This document shows positions 7,452 through 28,127 of a stretch of 64,000 nucleotides of DNA, one piece after another. The position numbers and the translations under genes are program-made. Where the stretch lies: NCBI GenBank assembly GCA_031761875.1, contig CP134492.1:1178001-1242000 (forward strand), in the 5' to 3' direction. The stretch is from Bacillaceae bacterium IKA-2 (GTDB lineage: Bacteria; Bacillota; Bacilli; Bacillales; Anaerobacillaceae). The notes below the pieces were generated by a model. It ran no database searches, was not told where the DNA came from, and worked only from the letters and a program-made list of their open reading frames with translations. Position 1 is the stretch's first letter. Each line of letters starts with the position of its first letter.

Positions 7452-8606
7452 ATGGGAAAAAAAATCTATCTTAAATTAAACGCACTTATCTTAGTATTCT
7501 TATTACTATTTCCAATATTTGCACCAAGTGCAGCTGCTTTTTCCGTATCCGGTCAAAGTGCAATCTTAATGGAACAAGAAAGTGGTCGAGTTCTTTATGA
7601 AAAAGATGCTCATAAACAATTGAGAATTGCTAGTATTACAAAAATAATGACAACATTATTAGCAATTGAATCAGGGAAAATGGACGAGATGGTAGTTGTC
7701 AGTAATAACGCGTTTGGAACAGAAGGATCATCGCTTTATTTACAGCTAGGAGAAAAAATTAAGCTTAACGACCTAGTTTATGGATTAATGCTTCGTTCAG
7801 GAAATGATGCTGCTGTTGCGATTGCAGAACACATTGGTGGTAGTCTTGATGGTTTTGTCTATTTAATGAATGAAAAAGCGAAAGAAATAGGAATGAGCAA
7901 AACTATTTTTAATAATCCTCATGGTTTGGATGACCACGAGGAACATTACTCAACGTCATATGATATGGCTTTATTAACTCGCTATGCGATGAAAAATGAA
8001 GTATACCAGAAAATTTCAGCCACAAAAAGTTACCGTTCCCCGCAAGATGGGGAAGACTGGGATCGAATCTGGCAAAATAAAAATCGATTATTGACACAAT
8101 TATATAAGTATTCAACAGGTGGCAAAACAGGTTACACGAAAAGAGCAAAACGTACGTTGGTTTCAACTGCTGCCAAGGACGAGACAAAACTAATTGCAGT
8201 CACGTTAAATGCCCCCAGCGATTGGCAAGACCATATCAATATGTTTAATTGGGGCTTTGATGCTTTTGAAGTTTTGCAAGTTGTCGAAGCTGGAATTGTC
8301 GATGGTCTAGAGGATGATTTTTACAAAAATAAAGTCAGTGCCGATTATACGTTTGATTATCCGCTAACGATGGAAGAAAAGCAGCAATTAAACCTAAAAA
8401 TTACGCTTTATAATCCCCCAAAAGGAAACGAATGGGAAGTAAATGGTGTGCCTAAACCTGTTGGTATCATAAAAATTGAATTAGCAGGAATGAATATTGG
8501 TGAAGTTCCGCTTTCTTTTGTAGGTGAATTAAAGGAAGAAAAGAGCTTGTGGTCACGTCTAATCGAACGGATATTCTTAATATTAGGAGTGATTAATGAT
8601 GGTTAA
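7452..8606 (+). CDS. dacB: D-alanyl-D-alanine carboxypeptidase DacB (spore cortex PBP5*)
   Basis: A 384-residue S11-family serine peptidase with an N-terminal signal sequence and the three active-site motifs SxxK (Ser61, Lys64 in ASITK), SGN (116-118) and KTG (224-226). It trims the terminal D-Ala of peptidoglycan stems. The assignment to DacB rather than DacA/DacF rests on the downstream spmA-spmB, the same order as the B. subtilis dacB operon, where DacB and Spm proteins set cortex cross-linking and spore core dehydration under sigma-E. It overlaps spmA by 11 bases. A C-terminal hydrophobic, amphipathic end would tether it to the membrane. Confidence 0.93.
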   Translation: MGKKIYLKLNALILVFLLLFPIFAPSAAAFSVSGQSAILMEQESGRVLYEKDAHKQLRIASITKIMTTLLAIESGKMDEMVVVSNNAFGTEGSSLYLQLGEKIKLNDLVYGLMLRSGNDAAVAIAEHIGGSLDGFVYLMNEKAKEIGMSKTIFNNPHGLDDHEEHYSTSYDMALLTRYAMKNEVYQKISATKSYRSPQDGEDWDRIWQNKNRLLTQLYKYSTGGKTGYTKRAKRTLVSTAAKDETKLIAVTLNAPSDWQDHINMFNWGFDAFEVLQVVEAGIVDGLEDDFYKNKVSADYTFDYPLTMEEKQQLNLKITLYNPPKGNEWEVNGVPKPVGIIKIELAGMNIGEVPLSFVGELKEEKSLWSRLIERIFLILGVINDG

Positions 8607-9195
8607 TATTATTTGGATGTCAATGTTAATCATCGGGATTGTTTTTGCTGCCATTAATGGAACTATGCCAGCTGTAAATGAAGCGATTTTTAAAGGAGCG
8701 CAAGATGCGGTTACGATCTGTATTGGTTTAATAAGTATTCTGGTTTTTTGGCTTGGTTTAATGCGGATTGCGGAGGTCTCTGGGATGCTGGGTGGATTAG
8801 CAAAAATAATGAGGCCAATTGCTAGAAAACTTTTTCCAGAAGTACCCAGCAATCATCCGGCTATGGGCTACATTTTATCTAATATGACTGCTAATTTATT
8901 TGGTTTAGGGAATGCAGCGACACCGATGGGAATTAAAGCAATGGAGCAATTAAAAAAATTGAATGGCGATAAAGACTCAGCTAGCCGCTCGATGATTACT
9001 TTATTAGCTATTAATACGGCTAGTATTACCTTGATACCAACGACGGTTATATCGATTAGGATGAATTATGGATCGGTAAACCCTACAGAAATTGTTGGTA
9101 CAACATTAATTGCAACCACTTGCTCGACATTGGCTGCGATTTTGATTGACCGTTTTTTTTATTACCGACGAATTAAAAAAGGTAGAGTTTTATAG
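8596..9195 (+). CDS. spmA: Spore maturation protein A
   Basis: A 199-residue polytopic membrane protein of the nucleoside-recognition (GATE) family, with the conserved LSNMTANLFGLGNAATP segment of SpmA. Together with SpmB it is needed for full dehydration of the spore core and for heat resistance in B. subtilis; the transported molecule, if any, is unknown. It overlaps dacB and stops immediately before spmB, so the three are one translationally coupled unit. Two consecutive ATGs (8596, 8599) follow TAGGAGTG; either could be used. Confidence 0.95.
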   Translation: MMVNIIWMSMLIIGIVFAAINGTMPAVNEAIFKGAQDAVTICIGLISILVFWLGLMRIAEVSGMLGGLAKIMRPIARKLFPEVPSNHPAMGYILSNMTANLFGLGNAATPMGIKAMEQLKKLNGDKDSASRSMITLLAINTASITLIPTTVISIRMNYGSVNPTEIVGTTLIATTCSTLAAILIDRFFYYRRIKKGRVL

Positions 9196-17680: not shown

Positions 17681-17829
17681 GGGTAAAACCTCCTAAAATC
17701 TGATAAGTAACAATTAAATTATATCATAATTTGTAATTATCAGAAATAACACTGTTCAAGGCGGTTGTTTATTATGTATAATGAAAGACAAGTAAATCAA
17801 TAGTTATCTTTAAGGTCACCTTACTTTGT

Positions 17830-18030
17830 TCTAAAGATAGGTGTTAAAAGGGAAGCTGGTGTAAGTCCAGTGCGGTCCCGCCACTGTAAACGCTTAAAGT
17901 GCTTGTTTGAAAAAAACAACGAGTGCTCAAATGTTTTAATATCCACTGTCAGTGTTGATGGGAAGGGAAAACATTTGTAATAATGCGTAAGTCAGGAGAC
18001 CTACCTTAAAGAAGTTGTGTAACCTTCGAG
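17830..18030 (+). promoter_or_regulatory. Cobalamin riboswitch (adenosylcobalamin-responsive leader)
   Basis: The region contains the B12-box hallmarks in order: AAAAGGGAAGC, GGTGTAAGTCCAGTGCGG, the CCCGCCACTGT core (17877-17887), and GTCAGGAGACCTACC (17991-18005). A TATAAT -10 element at 17777-17782 suggests transcription starts near 17789. The aptamer precedes a terminator (18094-18121) and then btuF, so B12 should shut off the whole downstream salvage operon by premature termination. The exact ends are estimated. Confidence 0.95.
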
Positions 18031-18190: not shown

Positions 18191-19117
18191 ATGAAGAAAT
18201 GGCTATTTATTTTCGTAATGATATTTTTAGCAACAAGTTTAACGGTGGGTTGTAACAGTACAGATGTAACAAATCAAGGGCTAACAGTTACTGACGCTCT
18301 TGGAAATGAAGTAACGGATGTTGAAAATCCAGAACGGATTATTTCACTTATTCCAAGTATAACGGAAACGATATTTGCCTTGGGTAAAGGAGATCAGCTA
18401 GTTGGTAGAACTGATTGGTGTAATTATCCCGAGCAAGTAACAGAGATTGCAAGTGTCGGCGATATGCAATTTGATGTTGAAAAGGTCTTATCGCTGAAGC
18501 CGGATTTAGTTTTATCACACGAGTCTAGTGCTTTTAGCTCGGAAGAAGGACTAGAGCAACTGAGAAATGCAGGAATTACAATAGTTGTAGTAAAAAATGA
18601 TACTTCAATTAATGATGTTTTAGAAACCATTGAACTGATTGGTGAAGTTATTGGGACTCATGAAAAAGCAAAACAACTAACTGCTGAGATGAATGCTAGT
18701 TTTACAGCGATTAGTGAAAAAGTAGCTTCTATTTCTGAAGAAGATATGGTAACGGTTTGGGTAGAAGTTTCCCCGGCACCAGATATATTTACAACAGGTC
18801 AAGGTACCTTTATGCATGAAATGCTAGAACTAATCAATGCAAATAACTCTGCTGGTAATCTAGAAGGGTGGGTGGCATTTACCGAAGAAGACGCAGTTAG
18901 TTTAAACCCTGATGTGATTGTTACGACATATGGACACTATATAGAAAATGCAGCAGACCAAGTAAAAAGTCGTCAAGGCTGGAAAGAAGTTACTGCCGTA
19001 AAAAACGACCGTGTTTATGACATTCATTCCGATAAAGTTACGCGCTCAGGGCCTCGTTTAGCAGAAGGAGTAGAAGAACTTGCAGCGATTATTTATCCGC
19101 AAATTTTTGGGAAATAA
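18191..19117 (+). CDS. btuF: Cobalamin/cobinamide ABC transporter substrate-binding lipoprotein BtuF
   Basis: A 308-residue lipoprotein (lipobox TVGC) with the periplasmic-binding fold of the iron-siderophore/B12 group: PERIISLIPSITETIFALG near the start, the family GRTDWCNYP turn, and a second lobe with EDAVSLNPDVIVTTYG. It captures corrinoids outside the cell for BtuC/BtuD. Being first after a cobalamin riboswitch and followed by btuC and btuD supports cobalamin rather than iron chelates as ligand. The 3' end overlaps the predicted btuC start. Confidence 0.93.
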   Translation: MKKWLFIFVMIFLATSLTVGCNSTDVTNQGLTVTDALGNEVTDVENPERIISLIPSITETIFALGKGDQLVGRTDWCNYPEQVTEIASVGDMQFDVEKVLSLKPDLVLSHESSAFSSEEGLEQLRNAGITIVVVKNDTSINDVLETIELIGEVIGTHEKAKQLTAEMNASFTAISEKVASISEEDMVTVWVEVSPAPDIFTTGQGTFMHEMLELINANNSAGNLEGWVAFTEEDAVSLNPDVIVTTYGHYIENAADQVKSRQGWKEVTAVKNDRVYDIHSDKVTRSGPRLAEGVEELAAIIYPQIFGK

Positions 19118-20132
19118 AATACTCTTTGCATATGTGCTAGCAAGTATGGTGTTAGTCATTTCTATAGTAATGGGGATATCGGTAGGTAGTCTATCGATTC
19201 CCTTTTCAACAGTTGTAAAAGTTATTTTTAGTAGCTTATTCTATTTTCCATTACCGGTAGATGTTGATTCGATTTACGTATCGATTATCTTAGACATTAG
19301 GTTTCCTAGAGTGCTGCTTGCCATGCTTGTAGGGGCGTCGTTATCGTTAGCAGGAGCCGCATTTCAAGGATTTTTAAAAAATCCGTTAGCAGACCCGTAT
19401 ACGTTAGGAGTTTCTTCTGGAGCTGCTTTAGGTGCCGTAATTGTTTTATTTTTTGGAGTATCAATACCGTTCTTAGGTAAGCTGACATTGCCATTAGTGA
19501 GTATTTTTTCAGGTTTCGTTACGTTACTACTAGTGATCTCATTTGCAAAATCAATTAATCGTCAAATGGCAGTTGAAACAATTATTTTAACAGGAATTAT
19601 TTTTAGTTCATTTTTAGGATCACTTATTTCCTTAATGATTGCCTTAACAGGCGATGAGTTGCGGCAAATTATTACATGGTTAATGGGAAGTGTCTCGATG
19701 CGTGGTTGGGAACACGTTATGCTACAAGCACCGTTCTTTTTGATAGGGTCAATCATTTTATTATTTAATAGTCGAGAATTAAATGCCTTAAGTTTCGGTG
19801 AAGAAACAGCCAAGCATCTTGGCGTAAATATTCAGCTTCGAAAAATGATGATTCTATTAGGGGCTTCTTTGTTAACAGGTTCCGCTGTCGCTGTTTCAGG
19901 GACGATTGGTTTTGTCGGCTTAGTGATTCCTCATTTAGTAAGGTTATTATGGGGAGCAGATCATAAACACCTTTTACCATTAGCGATGTTATTTGGCGGA
20001 GCATTTTTAATTTTAGCAGACCTTGTTGCAAGAACATTGATAGCGCCGACAGAACTACCGATTGGGGTCATTACAGCGTTAATTGGTGGACCGGTATTTG
20101 CGGTTATTCTATTTAAAACGAGCAGGAAATAG
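19080..20132 (+). CDS. btuC: Cobalamin ABC transporter permease BtuC (FecCD family)
   Basis: A protein of up to 350 residues with about ten transmembrane helices and FecCD/BtuC landmarks: RFPRVLLAMLVGASLSLAGAAFQGFLKNPLADPYTLGVSSGA, then GTIGFVGLVIPHLVRLLWG, the cytoplasmic loop that meets the ATPase. The start is uncertain. TTG 19080 has AGAAGGAG nine bases upstream and overlaps btuF by 38 bases; a TTG at 19107 would give a shorter N-terminus but has no ribosome site. Confidence 0.93.
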   Translation: MQRLFIRKFLGNKILFAYVLASMVLVISIVMGISVGSLSIPFSTVVKVIFSSLFYFPLPVDVDSIYVSIILDIRFPRVLLAMLVGASLSLAGAAFQGFLKNPLADPYTLGVSSGAALGAVIVLFFGVSIPFLGKLTLPLVSIFSGFVTLLLVISFAKSINRQMAVETIILTGIIFSSFLGSLISLMIALTGDELRQIITWLMGSVSMRGWEHVMLQAPFFLIGSIILLFNSRELNALSFGEETAKHLGVNIQLRKMMILLGASLLTGSAVAVSGTIGFVGLVIPHLVRLLWGADHKHLLPLAMLFGGAFLILADLVARTLIAPTELPIGVITALIGGPVFAVILFKTSRK

Positions 20133-20148
20133 CAAGGAGGGGTATTCG

Positions 20149-21636
20149 ATGATACTAGATGTCAATAATTTATCCGGGGGCTATAATGGGATTGAAATAG
20201 TCAGTAACATTTCATTTTCAGTTTCAAAAGGAGAAATTTTAGGGATTATTGGTCCGAATGGTAGTGGTAAAACGACATTATTAAAAATGATCAGTGGACT
20301 GCTCCCAATAAGTGCTGGTCAAATTCTTCTCAATGATCGGACGCTTGCTACTTACTCGTCAAAAGAACTTGCCCGGGAAATTGCCGTACTTCCGCAAAAC
20401 TCTGAATCCTCATTTACATACAATGTGAAAGATATTGTTGCGCTAGGAAGGTACCCCCATCAAAAAGGTTTTTTTGATGTAACTAAAAATAAAGATCTTG
20501 AAATTGTTGCTGAAGCAATGAACCAAACGAAAGTTAGTAAATTTAGCGATCATTATTTTCATACATTAAGTGGCGGAGAACAACAAAGAGTTTTACTTGC
20601 ACGTGCATTAGCCCAAGAGCCTAAATTATTACTTCTTGATGAACCAACAAATCATTTAGATATATCCTTTCAAATGGGCTTGTTAGATTCTCTAAGAGAG
20701 TGGACGAAGCAAAAATCACTAACCGTGGTAGCCATTTTACACGATCTAAATATGGCCAGTCTATATTGTGATCGAATCTTACTTTTGGATGAAGGTAAAC
20801 AGATAGCTTTGGATAAACCAAATATCGTCATGGAAGAAAGACAATTGGAAAAAATTTATCAAACACCATTAAGGAGAAAACAACATCCAGTTGTCCCCAA
20901 ACCGCTAATAACACTGCTTCCAAAAAATGGTCAAAGTGATCAACATGAACAACAAAAACTACTTACTAGGTTAACTGTATCGAAAACAGCTGAATTAATA
21001 GTCATTAAAAGTCCAGTTCAATTTAAAACGTTATCTTCAGCTGTATTAGGAGCTGGATTTAGCTGGGAGAAAACGTTTGTGAATAGACACGTCCATTTCG
21101 ATTACTGCTGTGACAATGTCGAAGTTGAGTTTAAAGCTTTCTTAGAGGACAAAAATTTAGATGCTTCTGAAACGATCGGGATGATGACTGCAGCTAAGCT
21201 AGAAGACGCCTCATTTATCGAAAGAAATGAAACTGATTTTGATATATTTGTAGTAGTAACAGTCGGGATTTCTAATGCGATCGATGCCTCAAAAGCTTAT
21301 TATCATCACGAGACGAACTCAGAGGTCGGAACGATTAATATCTTTATTTTTATTGAAGGAGATTTAAGTGAAGCGGCCTTCGTGCAAGCAATGATGACAG
21401 CAACAGAGGCAAAGGTGAAAGCGCTACATGATGAACAGGTAATAGATCAACTAACGGGGACGTTGGCAACTGGGACATCCACTGATAGCTTGTTGATTGC
21501 GGCGACTCAGACAGGAACTGTTTTACCGTATGCCGGTACCGTTACGCCACTTGGAAAAACAATTGGACTTGTCATATACGAAGCAACGGTGACAGCGATC
21601 CGCCGCAATAAAAAGAGATTGGCTTCCCAATTATGA
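20149..21636 (+). CDS. btuD: BtuD-CbiZ fusion: B12 transporter ATPase plus adenosylcobinamide amidohydrolase
   Basis: Residues 1-255 are an ABC ATPase with Walker A GPNGSGKTT, signature LSGGEQQR and Walker B LLLLDEPTNHLD. After a short linker, residues 280-495 carry CbiZ motifs: NRHVHFDYCC, GMMTAAK, VTVGISNA, GTSTDSLLIA and YAGTVTPLGKTIG. CbiZ cleaves the amide of adenosyl(pseudo)cobamides to adenosylcobyric acid, so imported foreign corrinoids can be rebuilt with the cell's own lower ligand. BtuD-CbiZ fusions are known in alkaliphilic bacilli. ATG 20149 follows AAGGAGGGG; the longer frame from 20083 lies within btuC. Confidence 0.93.
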   Translation: MILDVNNLSGGYNGIEIVSNISFSVSKGEILGIIGPNGSGKTTLLKMISGLLPISAGQILLNDRTLATYSSKELAREIAVLPQNSESSFTYNVKDIVALGRYPHQKGFFDVTKNKDLEIVAEAMNQTKVSKFSDHYFHTLSGGEQQRVLLARALAQEPKLLLLDEPTNHLDISFQMGLLDSLREWTKQKSLTVVAILHDLNMASLYCDRILLLDEGKQIALDKPNIVMEERQLEKIYQTPLRRKQHPVVPKPLITLLPKNGQSDQHEQQKLLTRLTVSKTAELIVIKSPVQFKTLSSAVLGAGFSWEKTFVNRHVHFDYCCDNVEVEFKAFLEDKNLDASETIGMMTAAKLEDASFIERNETDFDIFVVVTVGISNAIDASKAYYHHETNSEVGTINIFIFIEGDLSEAAFVQAMMTATEAKVKALHDEQVIDQLTGTLATGTSTDSLLIAATQTGTVLPYAGTVTPLGKTIGLVIYEATVTAIRRNKKRLASQL

Positions 21637-22604
21637 TTGAAACTCATCTGCTAGCCTTAACATTAGCTTTTCTAATCGATTTACTAATCGGTGATCCTAA
21701 ATCGCTCCCTCATCCTGTTAGGGGAATGGGTAACGTAATTGCATTACTGGAGAAAAAACTCAATTACGGTTCCAATCGAAAGCTAAAAGGAACTGTATTT
21801 TTGTTAGTCTATTTACTGTTAATTGCAGTTGTTGTCATCGTAGTTTTAGTACTAGCATATCAGCTGAACTTTATACTCGGTATCGCTGTTGAAGCTTGGA
21901 TTATTTCAACGACAATAGCGACGAAAGGTTTAAAAGATGCAGCAATTCAAGTGTATTTGCCTTTAAAGGAAAATGATTTTGTAACAGCAAGACAAAACTT
22001 AGCAATGATCGTGGGCAGAGATACTGAAAGACTAAATGAGGAAGAAATTGTTCGCGGTGCTGTTGAGACTGTCGCCGAAAATACGAGCGATGGGGTTACC
22101 GCACCTCTATTTTACGCTTTGCTCGGTGGCGGGTTTTTGGCGATACTTTACCGAGCTGTTAACACCTCTGACTCAATGGTTGGCTACACAAATGATCGTT
22201 ATAAACAGTTCGGATTTGCAGCAGCGAAACTTGATGATCTTTTAAATTTTCTACCGAGCCGATTGTCAGCATTTGTAATGTTGCTCGTTAATCGTCCGCT
22301 TGGAAATAGAAAAAGAAGTGAATGTTTCACGGTTTTATTTCGGGATGCAAAAAAACATCCAAGTCCAAATAGTGGTTGGTTAGAAGCGGCGATGGCGAGC
22401 CTTTTGCTCGTTCAACTAGGTGGCATAAATACATATAAAGGAATTAAATCGCATAGGGCAAAAATGGGAGATCCGCTGATGCCATTACAACGTGATCATC
22501 TCATCATTTGCAATCAATTTATGGTAAAAACGTGCTTTGGCTTTTTACTTATGTTGTGGTTAATTGGAGGTGTTTTTTATGTTATTACCAAGTCATGGAG
22601 CTAA
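21633..22604 (+). CDS. cbiB: Adenosylcobinamide-phosphate synthase CbiB
   Basis: A 323-residue membrane protein with the CbiB motifs LIGDPKSLPHPVRGMG near the start and AENTSDGVTAPLFYALLGG in the middle. It joins aminopropanol (or its phosphate) to adenosylcobyric acid, the product of CbiZ and CbiP, giving adenosylcobinamide (phosphate). It overlaps btuD-cbiZ by four bases (ATGA) and cobD by 26, so synthesis of the three is coupled. Confidence 0.95.
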   Translation: MIETHLLALTLAFLIDLLIGDPKSLPHPVRGMGNVIALLEKKLNYGSNRKLKGTVFLLVYLLLIAVVVIVVLVLAYQLNFILGIAVEAWIISTTIATKGLKDAAIQVYLPLKENDFVTARQNLAMIVGRDTERLNEEEIVRGAVETVAENTSDGVTAPLFYALLGGGFLAILYRAVNTSDSMVGYTNDRYKQFGFAAAKLDDLLNFLPSRLSAFVMLLVNRPLGNRKRSECFTVLFRDAKKHPSPNSGWLEAAMASLLLVQLGGINTYKGIKSHRAKMGDPLMPLQRDHLIICNQFMVKTCFGFLLMLWLIGGVFYVITKSWS

Positions 22605-23655
22605 TCCTGAAAAGTTAACAGAACTATTACAGCTCCCGTTACGAGCGGATGCAATTGATTTTAGTGTTAATACAGCGCCATTTCCGCTCCAAGCTAAAAT
22701 TACTGCTAATTGGTCAGAGTATCTAGAGACAATTACAAAGTATCCAGACCCCTTGTCAGGGCAGTTAAAAGAAATAATCGCTCGTAAAGAAAAGCTTACT
22801 ACGTCTGAAATTTTAGTCGGTAACGGTGCTGCACAGTTAATTTTTTTAATTGCGATGTTTTTTGCGGAAAAACGAGTCGTCATTGTCGAGCCAACCTTTT
22901 CTGAATATCGAGATGCCTGTAAAATATTTTCGTGTCACGTGGAGGCGCACCATTTACAAAAACCATGGCAACTTAATATAGAAAATTTAATTAATACTTG
23001 TAAAAATAACGATCTGCTTTTTATCTGTAATCCGAATAACCCAACTGGAGTAGCTTATTCAGCTCAGGAACTTGAATTTTTGATTGCCAGAGTAGCTGAA
23101 TTGGGAGTTACTGTCGTCGTTGATGAAGCATTTTACGACTTTAAACTTGACGGAGCAACCGTGATTCAATTAGTCAGTAAATATCCGAATTTAGTTGTGT
23201 TACGATCACTTACAAAAATGTATGGAATTGCCGGAATTCGTTTAGGTTACTTAGCGGCAAATCCAACATTCATAAAAAATATAAGTCCCTTTCAAAATCC
23301 TTGGAGTGTCAATGGCCTCGCCCAAAAACTAGGCATTGAGTGCTTAGAAGATACCGCTTATGTAAAAAAAATTCAAGAATTTGTTGCACAAGAGCGACAG
23401 CGGATTTTCCCGATTTTAGAAAGTTACGATTATGAAATATCTAAGTCAGAAGTGAATTTTTACCTTTTAAAAGAAAAAAACAAGCAGGAAGATTGTTTGC
23501 CGCTGATTAAATACTTGATTAAGCGTGGGATTATCCCGCGGCATACATATAATTTCCCTTTCCTAGATGGTACTTACCTGCGATTAGCAATCAAAACCAA
23601 GAGAGAAAACAATCAGCTTCTGACAGCTTTACAAGGCTGGAAAAGCCAATGTTAA
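22579..23655 (+). CDS. cobD: L-threonine-O-3-phosphate decarboxylase CobD (PLP enzyme)
   Basis: A 358-residue fold-type I PLP enzyme close to HisC. It has the N-terminal MLLPSHGANPEKL typical of CobD, FICNPNNPTG, DEAFYDF and the PLP lysine in LRSLTKMYGIAGIRLGY. It makes (R)-1-amino-2-propanol phosphate for CbiB, which precedes it. ATG 22579 is chosen since GGAGGTG ends six bases before; a longer TTG frame begins at 22564. Histidinol-phosphate aminotransferase is the main alternative, but operon context argues for CobD. Confidence 0.93.
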   Translation: MLLPSHGANPEKLTELLQLPLRADAIDFSVNTAPFPLQAKITANWSEYLETITKYPDPLSGQLKEIIARKEKLTTSEILVGNGAAQLIFLIAMFFAEKRVVIVEPTFSEYRDACKIFSCHVEAHHLQKPWQLNIENLINTCKNNDLLFICNPNNPTGVAYSAQELEFLIARVAELGVTVVVDEAFYDFKLDGATVIQLVSKYPNLVVLRSLTKMYGIAGIRLGYLAANPTFIKNISPFQNPWSVNGLAQKLGIECLEDTAYVKKIQEFVAQERQRIFPILESYDYEISKSEVNFYLLKEKNKQEDCLPLIKYLIKRGIIPRHTYNFPFLDGTYLRLAIKTKRENNQLLTALQGWKSQC

Positions 23656-24209
23656 TTTTTATTAGTGGCGGCGTCAGAAGTGGGAAAAGTTCTTTTGCTG
23701 AAAAACTTGCTTATTCTCTAGTAACTCCGAGCCAAGCCAAGCTTATTTACGTAGCAACAAGTCTTGGTGGCGATCATGAGATGCAAATGCGGATTGAAAG
23801 ACATCAGATTGACCGGATCAACAGTGGTTACCTATGGGAAACGAGAGAGCAACCTGTCAATTTAGAGAAATTGTTACCATTTTTTGCAAACGATCAGATC
23901 GTGCTTATTGATTGCTTAACAATACTTGTCGCTAACGAATTATTTTCAGAACTCGGCAAGTGGGATGATCCTTTCTATGTACAGGGAATATATACGAGAA
24001 TCGTCAATTTCATAGATGAAATTGGACGGCGAGGTATCGTAACAATGATCGTTTCTAATGAATTGTTTAACGACAGCATTGATTACGACGAGGCGACACT
24101 AATCTATTTGAAATTAGTGGCTCAGCTACATCAAATGCTTGTCAAAAAAGCCAGTTCTGCGTATTTGGTTGAAGTTGGTATTCCGCTTCAGATGAAAGGG
24201 TGTGAATAA
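23649..24209 (+). CDS. cobU: CobU-type adenosylcobinamide kinase/guanylyltransferase, kinase-site-intact paralog
   Basis: A 186-residue CobU family protein with an intact P-loop (GGVRSGKSS, residues 7-15), the histidine that CobU guanylylates (IERHQ, His52) and LIDCLT (Asp88). The family's conserved C-terminal block NEVGxGIVPxxxxxRxxRDxxGxxNQ is degenerate here: VSNELFNDSIDYDEATLIYLK. CobU phosphorylates adenosylcobinamide and transfers GMP to give AdoCbi-GDP. A second CobU-like gene at 27078 shows the opposite pattern. It overlaps cobD by seven bases and abuts cbiP. Confidence 0.9.
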   Translation: MLIFISGGVRSGKSSFAEKLAYSLVTPSQAKLIYVATSLGGDHEMQMRIERHQIDRINSGYLWETREQPVNLEKLLPFFANDQIVLIDCLTILVANELFSELGKWDDPFYVQGIYTRIVNFIDEIGRRGIVTMIVSNELFNDSIDYDEATLIYLKLVAQLHQMLVKKASSAYLVEVGIPLQMKGCE

Positions 24210-25727
24210 ATGAAAGGAATCATGCTTCAAGGTACAAGTTCAGATGTCGGAAAAAGTGTTCTTTGTACAGCACTCTGTAAATTATTTTCAGAGCGTGGAC
24301 TGAAGGTTGCCCCGTTTAAATCACAAAACATGTCAAATAATTCTTATGTAACATTCGATGGTAAAGAAATTGGTCGAGCACAAGGGGTTCAAGCAGAAGC
24401 TGCTAAAGTGGAAGCGAGCGTTTACATGAATCCAATTTTACTTAAGCCTAAAAACGATTGTACATCTGAGGTGATCAGATTTGGAATACCATACCAATCT
24501 TTATCTGGTAAAGAATATCGCCAGCAATTTTACGAGCTGGGTTTAGAAGCAATTGATGAGTCTGTGAAGAAATTATCCCAACAATTCGACTATTTAGTCG
24601 TCGAAGGAGCAGGTAGTCCAGTTGAAATCAATTTAAATGACCGTGAAATCGTTAATATGAAAGTCGCCGAAATATTAGATCTCCCTGTTATTCTTGTCGC
24701 TGATATTGACCGTGGTGGCGTATTTGCAAGTATTGTTGGTACGCTACAACTCCTCACTCCTCGGCAACGAAAACGCGTTGTTGGCGTTATTGTAAACAAA
24801 TTCCGCGGTGACATATCGCTGTTTGAAAGCGGTGTGGAATGGTTAGAAAATTATACAGGAAAGCCAATTTTGGGTGTGATTCCGTTTATGAATAATCTTG
24901 CGATTGAGGCAGAAGACAGTTTAGCAATTCCTACTTTTGCGACGAAGCAAAAGAGAGACCTTGATTTGGCAGTTATCAAGCTACCATATGTATCAAACTT
25001 CACTGATCTCGAACCTTTGCGTTTTGAAGAAGACGTCTCACTGCGTTTTGTTGGGCACGCTGATGAACTAGGCAATCCTGATGCAGTTATTATCCCTGGA
25101 ACTAAGAGTACAATTAACGATTTGAAATTCCTGAAAACTCAGGGGTTAGATGAGTCGCTATATCGATACGTTAGTAATGGCGGTAGACTGATTGGGATTT
25201 GTGGCGGCTATCAAATGATGGGTCAAGAGATTACTGACAAAGCAGGAACAGATACCGGAATGGTTGGTAAAAAAGAATCTGGACTCAAGCTTTTCCCCCT
25301 TGTAACATTTTTTGAAAAAGAAAAACAAGTAAAACGGAGTCAAGGTTTTATTGTCATAAATGAGCAAAAAAAAATTGCCATTGAAGGCTTCGAGATTCAC
25401 CTTGGTCAAACGAAACTACTACCGACTGAAACCGATTCATTTACAAGTTTTATTGAAGTAAATGATCATCAAAAAGAAGGTATGACTAGCAAAGATGGCA
25501 AAGTAATTGGCACTTATTTTCATAACCTCTTCCATAATGATCAGTGGCGCCATCACTGGTTAAATGAAATCCGCATAGAAAAACGGCTTGAACAAAAACA
25601 GTTTGATGCTAATTTAGCTTATGAAGACAAAAAGCAGCTTGCATATCAAGAGCTTGGAAGTTTTGTGGAGCAGCATTTAGATATAAGTGAAATTATCAGG
25701 ATAGTAGATGAATGGGGCACGCGATGA
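24210..25727 (+). CDS. cobQ: Cobyric acid synthase CbiP/CobQ (glutamine-dependent)
   Basis: A 505-residue amidotransferase: N-terminal dethiobiotin-synthetase-like ATPase domain (GTSSDVGKSVLCTALC, NMSNNSYVT) and C-terminal class I glutaminase-like domain with the GICGGYQMMG nucleophile elbow and a late histidine (YFHNLFHN). It amidates adenosylcobyrinic acid diamide to adenosylcobyric acid. Its ATG follows the cobU stop with no gap, and its own stop overlaps the cobS start. Confidence 0.95.
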   Translation: MKGIMLQGTSSDVGKSVLCTALCKLFSERGLKVAPFKSQNMSNNSYVTFDGKEIGRAQGVQAEAAKVEASVYMNPILLKPKNDCTSEVIRFGIPYQSLSGKEYRQQFYELGLEAIDESVKKLSQQFDYLVVEGAGSPVEINLNDREIVNMKVAEILDLPVILVADIDRGGVFASIVGTLQLLTPRQRKRVVGVIVNKFRGDISLFESGVEWLENYTGKPILGVIPFMNNLAIEAEDSLAIPTFATKQKRDLDLAVIKLPYVSNFTDLEPLRFEEDVSLRFVGHADELGNPDAVIIPGTKSTINDLKFLKTQGLDESLYRYVSNGGRLIGICGGYQMMGQEITDKAGTDTGMVGKKESGLKLFPLVTFFEKEKQVKRSQGFIVINEQKKIAIEGFEIHLGQTKLLPTETDSFTSFIEVNDHQKEGMTSKDGKVIGTYFHNLFHNDQWRHHWLNEIRIEKRLEQKQFDANLAYEDKKQLAYQELGSFVEQHLDISEIIRIVDEWGTR

Positions 25728-26536
25728 AACCAATAGCTCTTTTAAAAGTAGCGTTTGAGGGACTGATCTTCGCTTTTCAATTATTAACGATTGTGCCAAT
25801 CACCAAGCAAATTCCTTATCAGCAAAGGCAAGTACGAATTTCAGTACTTAGCTATCCAATTGTTGGATTGTTTTTAGGAGTAATCTTGTATGGCCTGCTG
25901 ATCATGCTTACGCAAATGACAACGGTTTCGTTTCTAATCATTGCCTTATTAATCGTAACGATCAGTATCGTTTATACAGGTGGCCTTCATTTAGATGGCT
26001 GGATGGATTGTAGTGATGCTTTTTTTTCTTATCGCGATCAAGAGAAAAAACTAGAAATTATGAAGGACTCACGAATTGGGGCGTTTGCGGCTTTATCCTT
26101 GTTGTTGTTACTAGCTTGGAAGGTTGTCCTTGTTTATGAAGTAATTACTCTATTTGCAGTAGAGTATTATCTAGTAATTATTTTGATCCCATTTCTTTCT
26201 CGTATCGCCATGGGTTTGAAACTTTATTTTGGTAAGCTAGCGAGGAATAAAGGAATGGCTTGGTCAATACGAAAATTTCTAGTAAAAAAAGACAGCATTG
26301 TTTATGGGCTTTTCTTAACTATTTTGATGATACTGGTAGCTTTGTTTTTTCAGCATCTGTTAGTCGTTGTAGTTTTATTAATATTTAGTAATTTTGGCTA
26401 TCTTATTGTATCAAGCTTATTTGATAAAAAGCATTTCGGAGGGATCAGCGGAGATACGTTAGGAGCTAGTGTAGAAGGAGGTGAATTGTGGTTATGGATG
26501 ACATTGTATCTGTTACTCTCCTTCGCCATGGGATAA
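25724..26536 (+). CDS. cobS: Adenosylcobinamide-GDP ribazoletransferase CobS
   Basis: A polytopic membrane protein of about 270 residues with CobS landmarks GGLHLDGWMDCSDAFFSY and the later KDSRIGAFAALS segment. It joins AdoCbi-GDP and alpha-ribazole (phosphate) to make adenosylcobalamin (phosphate). ATG 25724 overlaps the cbiP stop (ATGA); an in-frame ATG at 25712 would add four residues. It overlaps cobC by 49 bases. Confidence 0.94.
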   Translation: MKPIALLKVAFEGLIFAFQLLTIVPITKQIPYQQRQVRISVLSYPIVGLFLGVILYGLLIMLTQMTTVSFLIIALLIVTISIVYTGGLHLDGWMDCSDAFFSYRDQEKKLEIMKDSRIGAFAALSLLLLLAWKVVLVYEVITLFAVEYYLVIILIPFLSRIAMGLKLYFGKLARNKGMAWSIRKFLVKKDSIVYGLFLTILMILVALFFQHLLVVVVLLIFSNFGYLIVSSLFDKKHFGGISGDTLGASVEGGELWLWMTLYLLLSFAMG

Positions 26537-27126
26537 CAAAGGAAAATCAACAACGACGTTATATCGGCTGGACAGACCCAGATCTTGAAGATAGTGCGAT
26601 AACAATTTTGAAAACAAGCCAGTTACCGGCTCACTTTGATGTTATTTACGCAAGTGACTTAAAGCGCTGCACGCAAACAGCTAACTATTATGCTCCTAAC
26701 GAGACTGTCATTAAAGATGAACGATTACGGGAACTGCATTTTGGTTTCTGGGAAGGAAAAACGTATGAGGATCTAAAAACAATTAAGCTGTACCGAGATT
26801 GGATTGACTCGCCTTTTGAAATCAGTCCACCTTCTGGGGAATCGTATTTCGAACTGAAGGCAAGAGTGCTTGACGTGTGGCAAACGATCATCACTAGCTT
26901 AATTGAAAAACAGGCTAACGATATTCTTATTGTTAGCCATGGCGGACCGATTCGGCTTTTATTAACTCTTTTTGCAGATACTGATCCTAAAAAAGAGTGG
27001 TGGGATTGGCCTGTAAAACATCTTAGTGGTTATAGGTTGTTTTGGCCACGAGCAGTGCTTTTGAAAGGAGGGCCAAGATGCATTTCGTCACAGGTGGAGC
27101 CTTTCATGGTAAAAAACAATGGGTAA
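26488..27126 (+). CDS. cobC: Histidine-phosphatase-family alpha-ribazole phosphatase CobC
   Basis: A 212-residue phosphoglycerate-mutase-like protein with the phospho-histidine motif LLRHGITKENQQRRYIGW, RLRELHFGFWEG and the second catalytic histidine in IVSHGGPIRLL. In this operon it should remove the phosphate from alpha-ribazole phosphate or adenosylcobalamin phosphate. GTG 26488 lies six bases after GGAGG and is preferred; ATG 26494 is the alternative. The C-terminus is longer than usual and overlaps the next start. Confidence 0.85.
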   Translation: MVMDDIVSVTLLRHGITKENQQRRYIGWTDPDLEDSAITILKTSQLPAHFDVIYASDLKRCTQTANYYAPNETVIKDERLRELHFGFWEGKTYEDLKTIKLYRDWIDSPFEISPPSGESYFELKARVLDVWQTIITSLIEKQANDILIVSHGGPIRLLLTLFADTDPKKEWWDWPVKHLSGYRLFWPRAVLLKGGPRCISSQVEPFMVKNNG

Positions 27127-27530
27127 TTGATCACTATCAGATTAATGATTATCAAATAAATGAAACTACAAACTATTTGTGGTTTAATGGTTACAAATCA
27201 GCAAATAAGTATTTTCAAGTAATGATTGAGCTTGAAAATAAGCAGTTACTTGTTATTGAAGCAGTTAACGAAGTCATTTTCGAAATGCTTAAATCTGAAG
27301 CCAGTTTTCCTGCTTTTGAAAACTGGCTTCAGGAAATTTTAACATGGGAACAAAATGGAGTAGAGCGGCAAGTTGTTTTTATTGGAACAGATGTTGGCAA
27401 AGGAATTGTGCCAATTGAAAAAGAACAACGCTTAATAAGAGATGAAGTTGGCAGGTGCTTTCAGCTGCTTGCAAAAAAAGCAACGAATGTTTCACTAATA
27501 TGGTATGGATTACAGCAATCACTAAAATAA
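27078..27530 (+). CDS. CobU-like paralog with degenerate P-loop
   Basis: A 150-residue protein. Its start MHFVTGGAFHGKKQW aligns with the CobU P-loop but lacks the Ser/Thr after Lys (GKK), and the guanylylated histidine region is missing. In contrast its end, GTDVGKGIVPIEKEQRLIRDEVGRCFQLLAKKATNVSLIWYG in position 103-144, keeps the C-terminal block that is lost in the 23649 CobU. ATG 27078 is chosen because GGAGGGCC precedes it. It may complement the first CobU as a second subunit, or be a diverged duplicate; this is inference. Confidence 0.75.
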   Translation: MHFVTGGAFHGKKQWVIDHYQINDYQINETTNYLWFNGYKSANKYFQVMIELENKQLLVIEAVNEVIFEMLKSEASFPAFENWLQEILTWEQNGVERQVVFIGTDVGKGIVPIEKEQRLIRDEVGRCFQLLAKKATNVSLIWYGLQQSLK

Positions 27531-27545
27531 TAGGGGGCGTTTTTG

Positions 27546-28127
27546 ATGAAATTGTATACAAGAACAGGTGATGAAGGAAAGACAAGTGTCATTGGCGGAA
27601 GATTGGATAAGGATCATGTCCGAGTCGAAGCTTATGGAACCATTGATGAAGCAAATTGTTTTGTAGGTGTTGCAGCAACTCAACTTGATCAAAAATTATT
27701 TCCAGACATTTTAGCAGAACTAGAAAAAATTCAACATGAACTCTTTGATTGTGGTGGAGATTTAGCGATGATCTCTACTAAATACCCGTATAAAGCTACT
27801 GAAGAGATGATTACGTTTTTAGAGAATCGGATCGATGAGTATATTGTCGAGGCTCCTGAGTTAGAAAAATTTATATTGCCAGGTGGAACACCAGCAGCCG
27901 CAACGATTCACGTTTGTCGAACAGTTACTCGCCGAGCCGAGAGGCTGGTAGTTCAGTTGCAAAAAATTGATACAACGAACCCAATTGTCTTAAAATACAT
28001 TAATCGTTTATCAGACTATTTCTTTGCAATTGGCAGAGTCATTAATCACCGCAACGGCGTCAAAGATGTTGAATACGAGCGCAGCGCAATAGTGTTCCGT
28101 GATGGAAAGAGAAAAGAAGATGAGTAG
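27546..28127 (+). CDS. pduO: PduO-type ATP:cob(I)alamin adenosyltransferase
   Basis: A 193-residue protein with the PduO N-terminal ATP motif LYTRTGDEGKTSVIGG, the YGTIDEANCFVG helix and RRAERLVV later. It transfers the adenosyl group from ATP to cob(I)alamin or cobinamide, giving the coenzyme form that CobU, CbiB and the riboswitch need. ATG 27546 follows AGGGGGCG; it is the last gene of the operon and is followed by a strong terminator. Confidence 0.94.
   Translation: MKLYTRTGDEGKTSVIGGRLDKDHVRVEAYGTIDEANCFVGVAATQLDQKLFPDILAELEKIQHELFDCGGDLAMISTKYPYKATEEMITFLENRIDEYIVEAPELEKFILPGGTPAAATIHVCRTVTRRAERLVVQLQKIDTTNPIVLKYINRLSDYFFAIGRVINHRNGVKDVEYERSAIVFRDGKRKEDE

What the first reader, a model, noticed from the sequence alone, without database searches (positions are those of the whole stretch)
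23649..27530. Two CobU paralogs with complementary loss of motifs
The 23649 protein keeps the P-loop (GGVRSGKSS), the His52 region and Asp88 but has lost the C-terminal NEVGxGIVP...R..RD..G block. The 27078 protein lacks the P-loop Ser/Thr and the histidine but keeps exactly that block (GTDVGKGIVP, RDEVGRCFQLL). The enzyme may have become a heteromer with split kinase and guanylyltransferase or assembly surfaces.
Basis: partly seen in the sequence, partly recalled or inferred. Interest (0 to 1): 0.62.

Follow-up and report, generated by a model that had tools for sequence, protein, structure and literature searches.

The report
Split two-gene CobU, vitamin B12 assembly
A vitamin B12 assembly enzyme that is normally made of one kind of protein (CobU) has been divided in many Gram-positive bacteria into two genes, each keeping a different half of the conserved sites, and the two halves are found fused again in one genus, so they probably work together as one enzyme; we found no description of this, though only an open-access library could be searched.

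Summary
Protein A (23649-24209) keeps the P-loop, the guanylylated His (H52 = Salmonella His46) and Asp88, and has lost the GxGIVP...R..RD..G block. Protein B (27078-27530) keeps that block, has lost the P-loop Ser/Thr, and the segment carrying His46 is deleted. Of 45 positions conserved in ordinary CobU, 21 survive only in A (residues 10-134) and 9 only in B (139-168).

Among 348 genomes of the order, the 178 with CobS are exactly 166 with A+B and 12 with ordinary CobU; none has A or B alone. A and B are co-operonic and each forms one clade apart from ordinary CobU. The pair extends to other classes of Bacillota. In nine species of one genus A and B are one polypeptide. I conclude that A and B most likely form one heteromeric CobU, with both catalytic motifs in A and B supplying a substrate or interface block. 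A kinase/guanylyltransferase split is not supported.

Against strict obligacy: one derived clostridial clade has A and CobS without B, and a B copy is under purifying selection in two genomes lacking A and CobS. No complex was modelled or measured.

The parts
17796..18022 (+). cobalamin riboswitch at the head of the operon
   Evidence: Rfam RF00174, 103.5 bits, E 2.6e-25
18191..22604 (+). btuF, btuC, btuD-cbiZ fusion, cbiB (upstream operon genes)
   Evidence: ORFs; Pfam ABC_tran + CbiZ in one ORF, CobD_Cbib for cbiB; btuF/btuC named from sequence
22564..23655 (+). cobD, threonine-phosphate decarboxylase, overlaps the start of A
   Evidence: TIGR01140 308 bits, over cut-off
23649..24209 (+). 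CobU-A: P-loop, His and Asp kept; C-terminal block lost
   Evidence: PF02283 124.6 bits; motif columns; AF2 pLDDT 92.5 and CobU fold
24210..26536 (+). cobQ (24210-25727) and cobS (25712-26536)
   Evidence: Pfam
26488..27126 (+). cobC-like histidine phosphatase
   Evidence: PF00300; TIGR03162 126.9 bits, below its cut-off of 162.9
27078..27530 (+). CobU-B: GGAFHGK without Ser/Thr, His segment deleted, GTDVGKGIVP...R..RDEVG block kept
   Evidence: PF02283 42.2 bits; motif columns; AF2 pLDDT 91.5, CobU Z 17.0 against RecA 12.2
27543..28127 (+). pduO-type ATP:corrinoid adenosyltransferase
   Evidence: TIGR00636 205 bits

Best explanation
A and B are the two subunits of a split CobU that arose by duplication of an ordinary CobU and complementary loss of motifs. 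A is the catalytic subunit: it binds NTP/GTP at its P-loop and carries the His that takes the GMP. B is a shortened subunit that no longer has those motifs but supplies the GxGIVP...R..RD..G block that A lost. In an A-B complex (stoichiometry unknown; perhaps A-B units replacing the homotrimer) B's block completes A's active site or its corrinoid-binding face, so the pair makes AdoCbi-GDP for CobS. Shown: complementary conservation, same fold, co-occurrence, operon, common origin, natural fusion. Inferred: physical complex, trans-acting block, catalytic roles.
For: Complementary conservation over the order and beyond. All 178 CobS+ genomes of 348 carry either A+B (166) or ordinary CobU (12); none has one half only. 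Gene order A-[cobQ]-cobS-[cobC]-B in every A-bearing order locus examined; all 80 named loci have both genes. The A/cobS/B arrangement recurs in distant Bacillota, once with overlapping A and B ORFs. A-B fusion ORFs of 308-341 aa in nine species of one genus, A motifs in the first half and B motifs in the second, next to cobS where checked. A, B and ordinary CobU are three separate clades (A 99/89, B 100/99; A against ordinary 100/100). AF2 models of both have the CobU fold.
Against: A derived clostridial clade has A and CobS but no B found by PF02283 or by B profiles (G535, G695, 11 checked species of genus g248). A B copy is under strong purifying selection (dN/dS 0.05) in two genomes without A, ordinary CobU or CobS. 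Distance-matrix correlation of A with B is no higher than of either with CobS, and covariation A-B is no stronger than the A-CobS and B-CobS controls. No complex was modelled or measured.
Confidence: 0.62

Rival explanations
1. A alone is the whole enzyme (homomer). B is an accessory protein with its own job, for example holding corrinoid, regulating A or handing substrate to CobS/CbiZ.
For: Solo A with CobS in one clostridial clade; B2 under selection without A and CobS; B keeps an invariant Walker Lys; no A-B-specific covariation.
Against: B's most invariant residues are exactly those lost by A. No A-bearing CobS+ genome of the order lacks B. A-B fusions. Solo A is a derived clade inside A+B (96/85), so its independence may be secondary.
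Confidence: 0.25
2. True division of labour: A is one of the two activities (kinase or guanylyltransferase) and B the other.
For: Two CobU-family genes in the pathway operon; ordinary CobU has two activities (PMC8749415).
Against: B lacks the P-loop Ser/Thr and the guanylylated His and has D80 changed to Glu or other residues, so neither known chemistry has its residues there; A has both.
Confidence: 0.05
3. B is a decaying duplicate without function.
For: Short, low Pfam score.
Against: Eight block residues are 98-100% conserved in 79 B proteins; dN/dS about 0.05 for B2; kept beside A in every A-bearing genome of the order.
Confidence: 0.01

Closest known systems
CobU/CobP (PF02283; Salmonella CobU 1CBU/1C9K, Methylocapsa 8YEP, Akkermansia 9VIO)
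   Same: Fold, RecA-like P-loop core, same pathway slot next to cobS and cobC; every conserved motif is present in A or in B
   Different: One gene with all motifs (a homotrimer, from memory of the Salmonella structure papers); here two genes with complementary motifs, and B is 150 aa with residues 21-46 deleted
CobY (archaeal AdoCbi-P guanylyltransferase)
   Same: Same step of the pathway
   Different: Non-homologous to CobU (PMC7242693), single protein; A and B match CobU, not CobY, by Pfam and fold search
RecA-superfamily rings with catalytic and non-catalytic paralogous subunits (for example F1-ATPase beta/alpha)
   Same: Works-like analogy: one paralog keeps the catalytic P-loop, the other supplies interface residues
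   Different: Analogy only, from general knowledge; B superposes on CobU (Z 17.0) better than on RecA (12.2), and no trans contact has been shown

Membership tests
CobU family (PF02283) | Score over the Pfam gathering cut-off (27 bits) | tested here: met
   A 124.6, B 42.2 bits
CobU, bifunctional equivalog (NCBIfam NF004469) | Score over the equivalog cut-off (161 bits) | tested here: not met
   A 116.5, B 48.5 bits: neither is an ordinary bifunctional CobU by this rule
CobU, bifunctional equivalog (NCBIfam NF004469) | P-loop GxxxxGK[ST] and guanylylated His46 in one chain with the GxGIVP...R..RD..G block | tested here: not met
   A has the first two and not the block; B has the block and not the first two. 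Together, or in the fusion proteins, all are present
CobU family (PF02283) | CobU fold | tested here: met
   AF2 models pLDDT 92.5/91.5; CobU entries are the best hits for both
CobU family (PF02283) | Homotrimer, AdoCbi kinase and guanylyltransferase activity | not testable with these tools
   no complex modelling or assay available
Split heteromeric enzyme (A+B) | The two genes occur together wherever the pathway works | tested here: inconclusive
   met in the order (166 of 166 CobS+ genomes without ordinary CobU); not met in one derived clostridial clade
Split heteromeric enzyme (A+B) | Natural fusion of the two halves | tested here: met
   nine species, single ORFs
Split heteromeric enzyme (A+B) | Direct physical interaction | not testable with these tools
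   no complex modelling or assay; covariation was uninformative

The most novel reading that the evidence does not exclude
CobU of many Bacillota is an undescribed two-subunit enzyme: a catalytic subunit (A) that is completed in trans by a degenerate paralog (B) donating the conserved C-terminal block, with later refusion in one genus and later loss or replacement of B in another lineage. This would imply that the block of ordinary CobU acts across a subunit interface.
Probability: 0.45. Interest if true: 0.68.

Novelty: new variant of a known kind. Interest (0 to 1): 0.57.

Why it matters
CobU makes the activated corrin (AdoCbi-GDP) in late vitamin B12 assembly and salvage. If A and B are one heteromer, naming both 'bifunctional CobU' is wrong across a good part of Bacillota, B is an overlooked pathway gene, and nature has done a complementation experiment that separates catalytic motifs from substrate/interface motifs. 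It makes an open mechanistic question (whether the conserved C-terminal block works on the same or the neighbouring subunit) directly testable with A-only, B-only, A+B and natural fusion proteins. The solo-A clade and the A-less B2 copy offer natural controls.

Tried and rejected
Two early trees used canonical rows cut short at the N-terminus by my extraction and are superseded and, for the C-terminal part; two of the 22 canonical rows (L305, L313) are still partial. A Fisher test on presence/absence of conserved positions was not significant (p 0.10) because shared and doubly lost positions dilute it; the informative fact is the clean positional segregation. Long ORFs first suspected to be A-B fusions (L282-L287) are ordinary CobU, some fused to other domains. 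The rows with G154 used a wrongly cut sequence and are ignored. Papers: nine searches found no description of a split CobU; only open-access PMC text was searched. The structural likeness of B to RecA gives no test of a trans role.

Full report
Observation. The window carries a cobalamin-riboswitch-headed operon: riboswitch 17796-18022, btuF, btuC, btuD-cbiZ, cbiB, cobD, CobU-A, cobQ, cobS, cobC, CobU-B, pduO. A is 23649-24209; B is 27078-27530, with a strong Shine-Dalgarno directly before its ATG. A matches the Pfam CobU profile over its whole length (124.6 bits). B matches only over its second part (42.2 bits). Both fail the NCBIfam equivalog cut-off for ordinary bifunctional CobU.

Motifs. 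In Salmonella CobU numbering, 74 A proteins of the order are invariant or nearly so at R9, S/T13, E17, D36, E38, M39, R42, H46, R50, E58, D80, C81 and T83, and have lost G137, G139, V141, P142, R148, R151 and D152. 79 B proteins are 98-100% at G6, G11, K12, G139, V141, P142, R148, R151, D152, G155, Q159, G174 and K180. They lack residues 22-45 in all and 21 and 46 in about 98%, and have mostly lost S13. With distant Bacillota included, 45 positions are at least 85% conserved in 20 ordinary CobU. 21 survive only in A (positions 10-134), 9 only in B (139-168), 6 in both (the P-loop glycines and lysine, G174, K180) and 9 in neither. The segregation along the chain is clean, though neighbouring positions are not independent.

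Distribution. In 348 genomes of the order, CobS (the enzyme that needs CobU's product) is present in 178. These are the same genomes as 166 with A+B plus 12 with ordinary CobU. Eleven further weak PF02283 hits are chance-level (E 3e-4 to 9e-4). Two genomes have B but no A; they also lack CobS. Gene order A-[cobQ]-cobS-[cobC]-B holds in every A-bearing order locus read, and all 80 named GTDB loci, from Halalkalibacterium, Neobacillus, Fictibacillus, Oceanobacillus, Priestia and others, have both genes. In a 398-genome sample of the phylum most CobU-bearing genomes have ordinary CobU, and a minority have A-type proteins. Most of these carry a short B-type partner, usually about a gene length downstream of A, with cobS between where the loci were annotated; once the A and B ORFs overlap (L288).

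Fusion. In genus code g248, nine species encode A and B as one ORF of 308-341 aa, the others 45-95% identical to the first found, with the A motifs in the first half and the B motifs in the second. The ORF lies next to cobS and cbiB in G488, and cobS lies beside it in the seven other fusion species searched. Conservation over nine species excludes an assembly error. Such fusion is classic evidence that two separate proteins act together.

Origin. In the full-length tree all A proteins (Bacilli, Clostridia-like, fused, solo) are on one side of a branch with support 100/100 from all ordinary CobU, Salmonella included. On C-terminal columns, A (99/89), B (100/99) and ordinary CobU separate. The trees are unrooted. 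Since ordinary CobU is found across phyla and holds all motifs, the simplest reading is one duplication with complementary loss, then fusion in one lineage.

Structure. AlphaFold2 gives confident single-chain models (pLDDT 92.5 and 91.5). Both match CobU entries best. For B the structural Z is 17.0 against CobU and 12.2 for the next family, RecA. B is therefore a shortened CobU, not an unrelated protein with a look-alike motif. No complex could be modelled.

Mechanism. From established work on Salmonella CobU (references listed in PMC8749415: a CobU-GMP intermediate, His-46 as the site of guanylylation, a substrate-induced transferase site), the enzyme binds NTP at a P-loop and transfers GMP through His46. 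Both motifs are in A, so A should hold the chemistry. B cannot do it by the known route. What B keeps is the strand-loop-helix block after 'NE', whose job in ordinary CobU I could not read from a structure here. In the RecA superfamily such elements often lie at subunit interfaces (general knowledge), so I infer that B completes A's site or corrinoid face in trans. That step is inference.

Counter-evidence. A solo-A clade (one clade, 96/85, nested inside A+B) lives in CobS+ genomes without detectable B: G535, G695 and at least 11 species of g248. So B has become dispensable, or was replaced, at least once. A B duplicate (B2) in three related species is under strong purifying selection (dN/dS 0.04-0.07), two of them without A, ordinary CobU or CobS, so this copy probably does something without A, unless the loss of A and CobS there is recent. 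Correlated-evolution tests were uninformative. These facts keep the heteromer at about 0.6 rather than higher.

Known or new. I found no paper describing a split CobU (open-access text only). It is a new variant of a known enzyme family.

Noticed in passing
L109:8112-8577, L110 minus strand 8259-8709, L102:11233-11683: A second B-type gene (B2) downstream of an NPD/FabK-like gene; in two species it persists under strong purifying selection although A, ordinary CobU and CobS are absent and only btuFCD-cbiZ remains.
   Followed up: partly
L353, L354, L355, L333-L351 (G535, G695, G658, genus g248): Solo A-type CobU in cob operons with cobS but without B; several also lose the C-terminal G..P..K. 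How they work without the block is unexplained.
   Followed up: partly
L283:1-2049, L284 minus strand: Ordinary CobU embedded in a 683-754 aa ORF between an ABC-transporter ATPase (BtuD-like) and an AIR-synthase-like domain.
   Followed up: no
L312 (G680): CobU-like protein with P-loop but no His46 and a degenerate block (VETGFSLP), no cob genes recognised nearby; possibly another function.
   Followed up: no
L012 (G177) and relatives G096, G203: Ordinary-type CobU with GLGGVAMSP and FQD instead of GxGIVP and FRD, in a genus where another species (G061) has A+B: possible replacement of one form by the other.
   Followed up: no
window 20083-21636: BtuD ATPase fused to CbiZ amidohydrolase in one ORF; recurrent in the order.
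   Followed up: no
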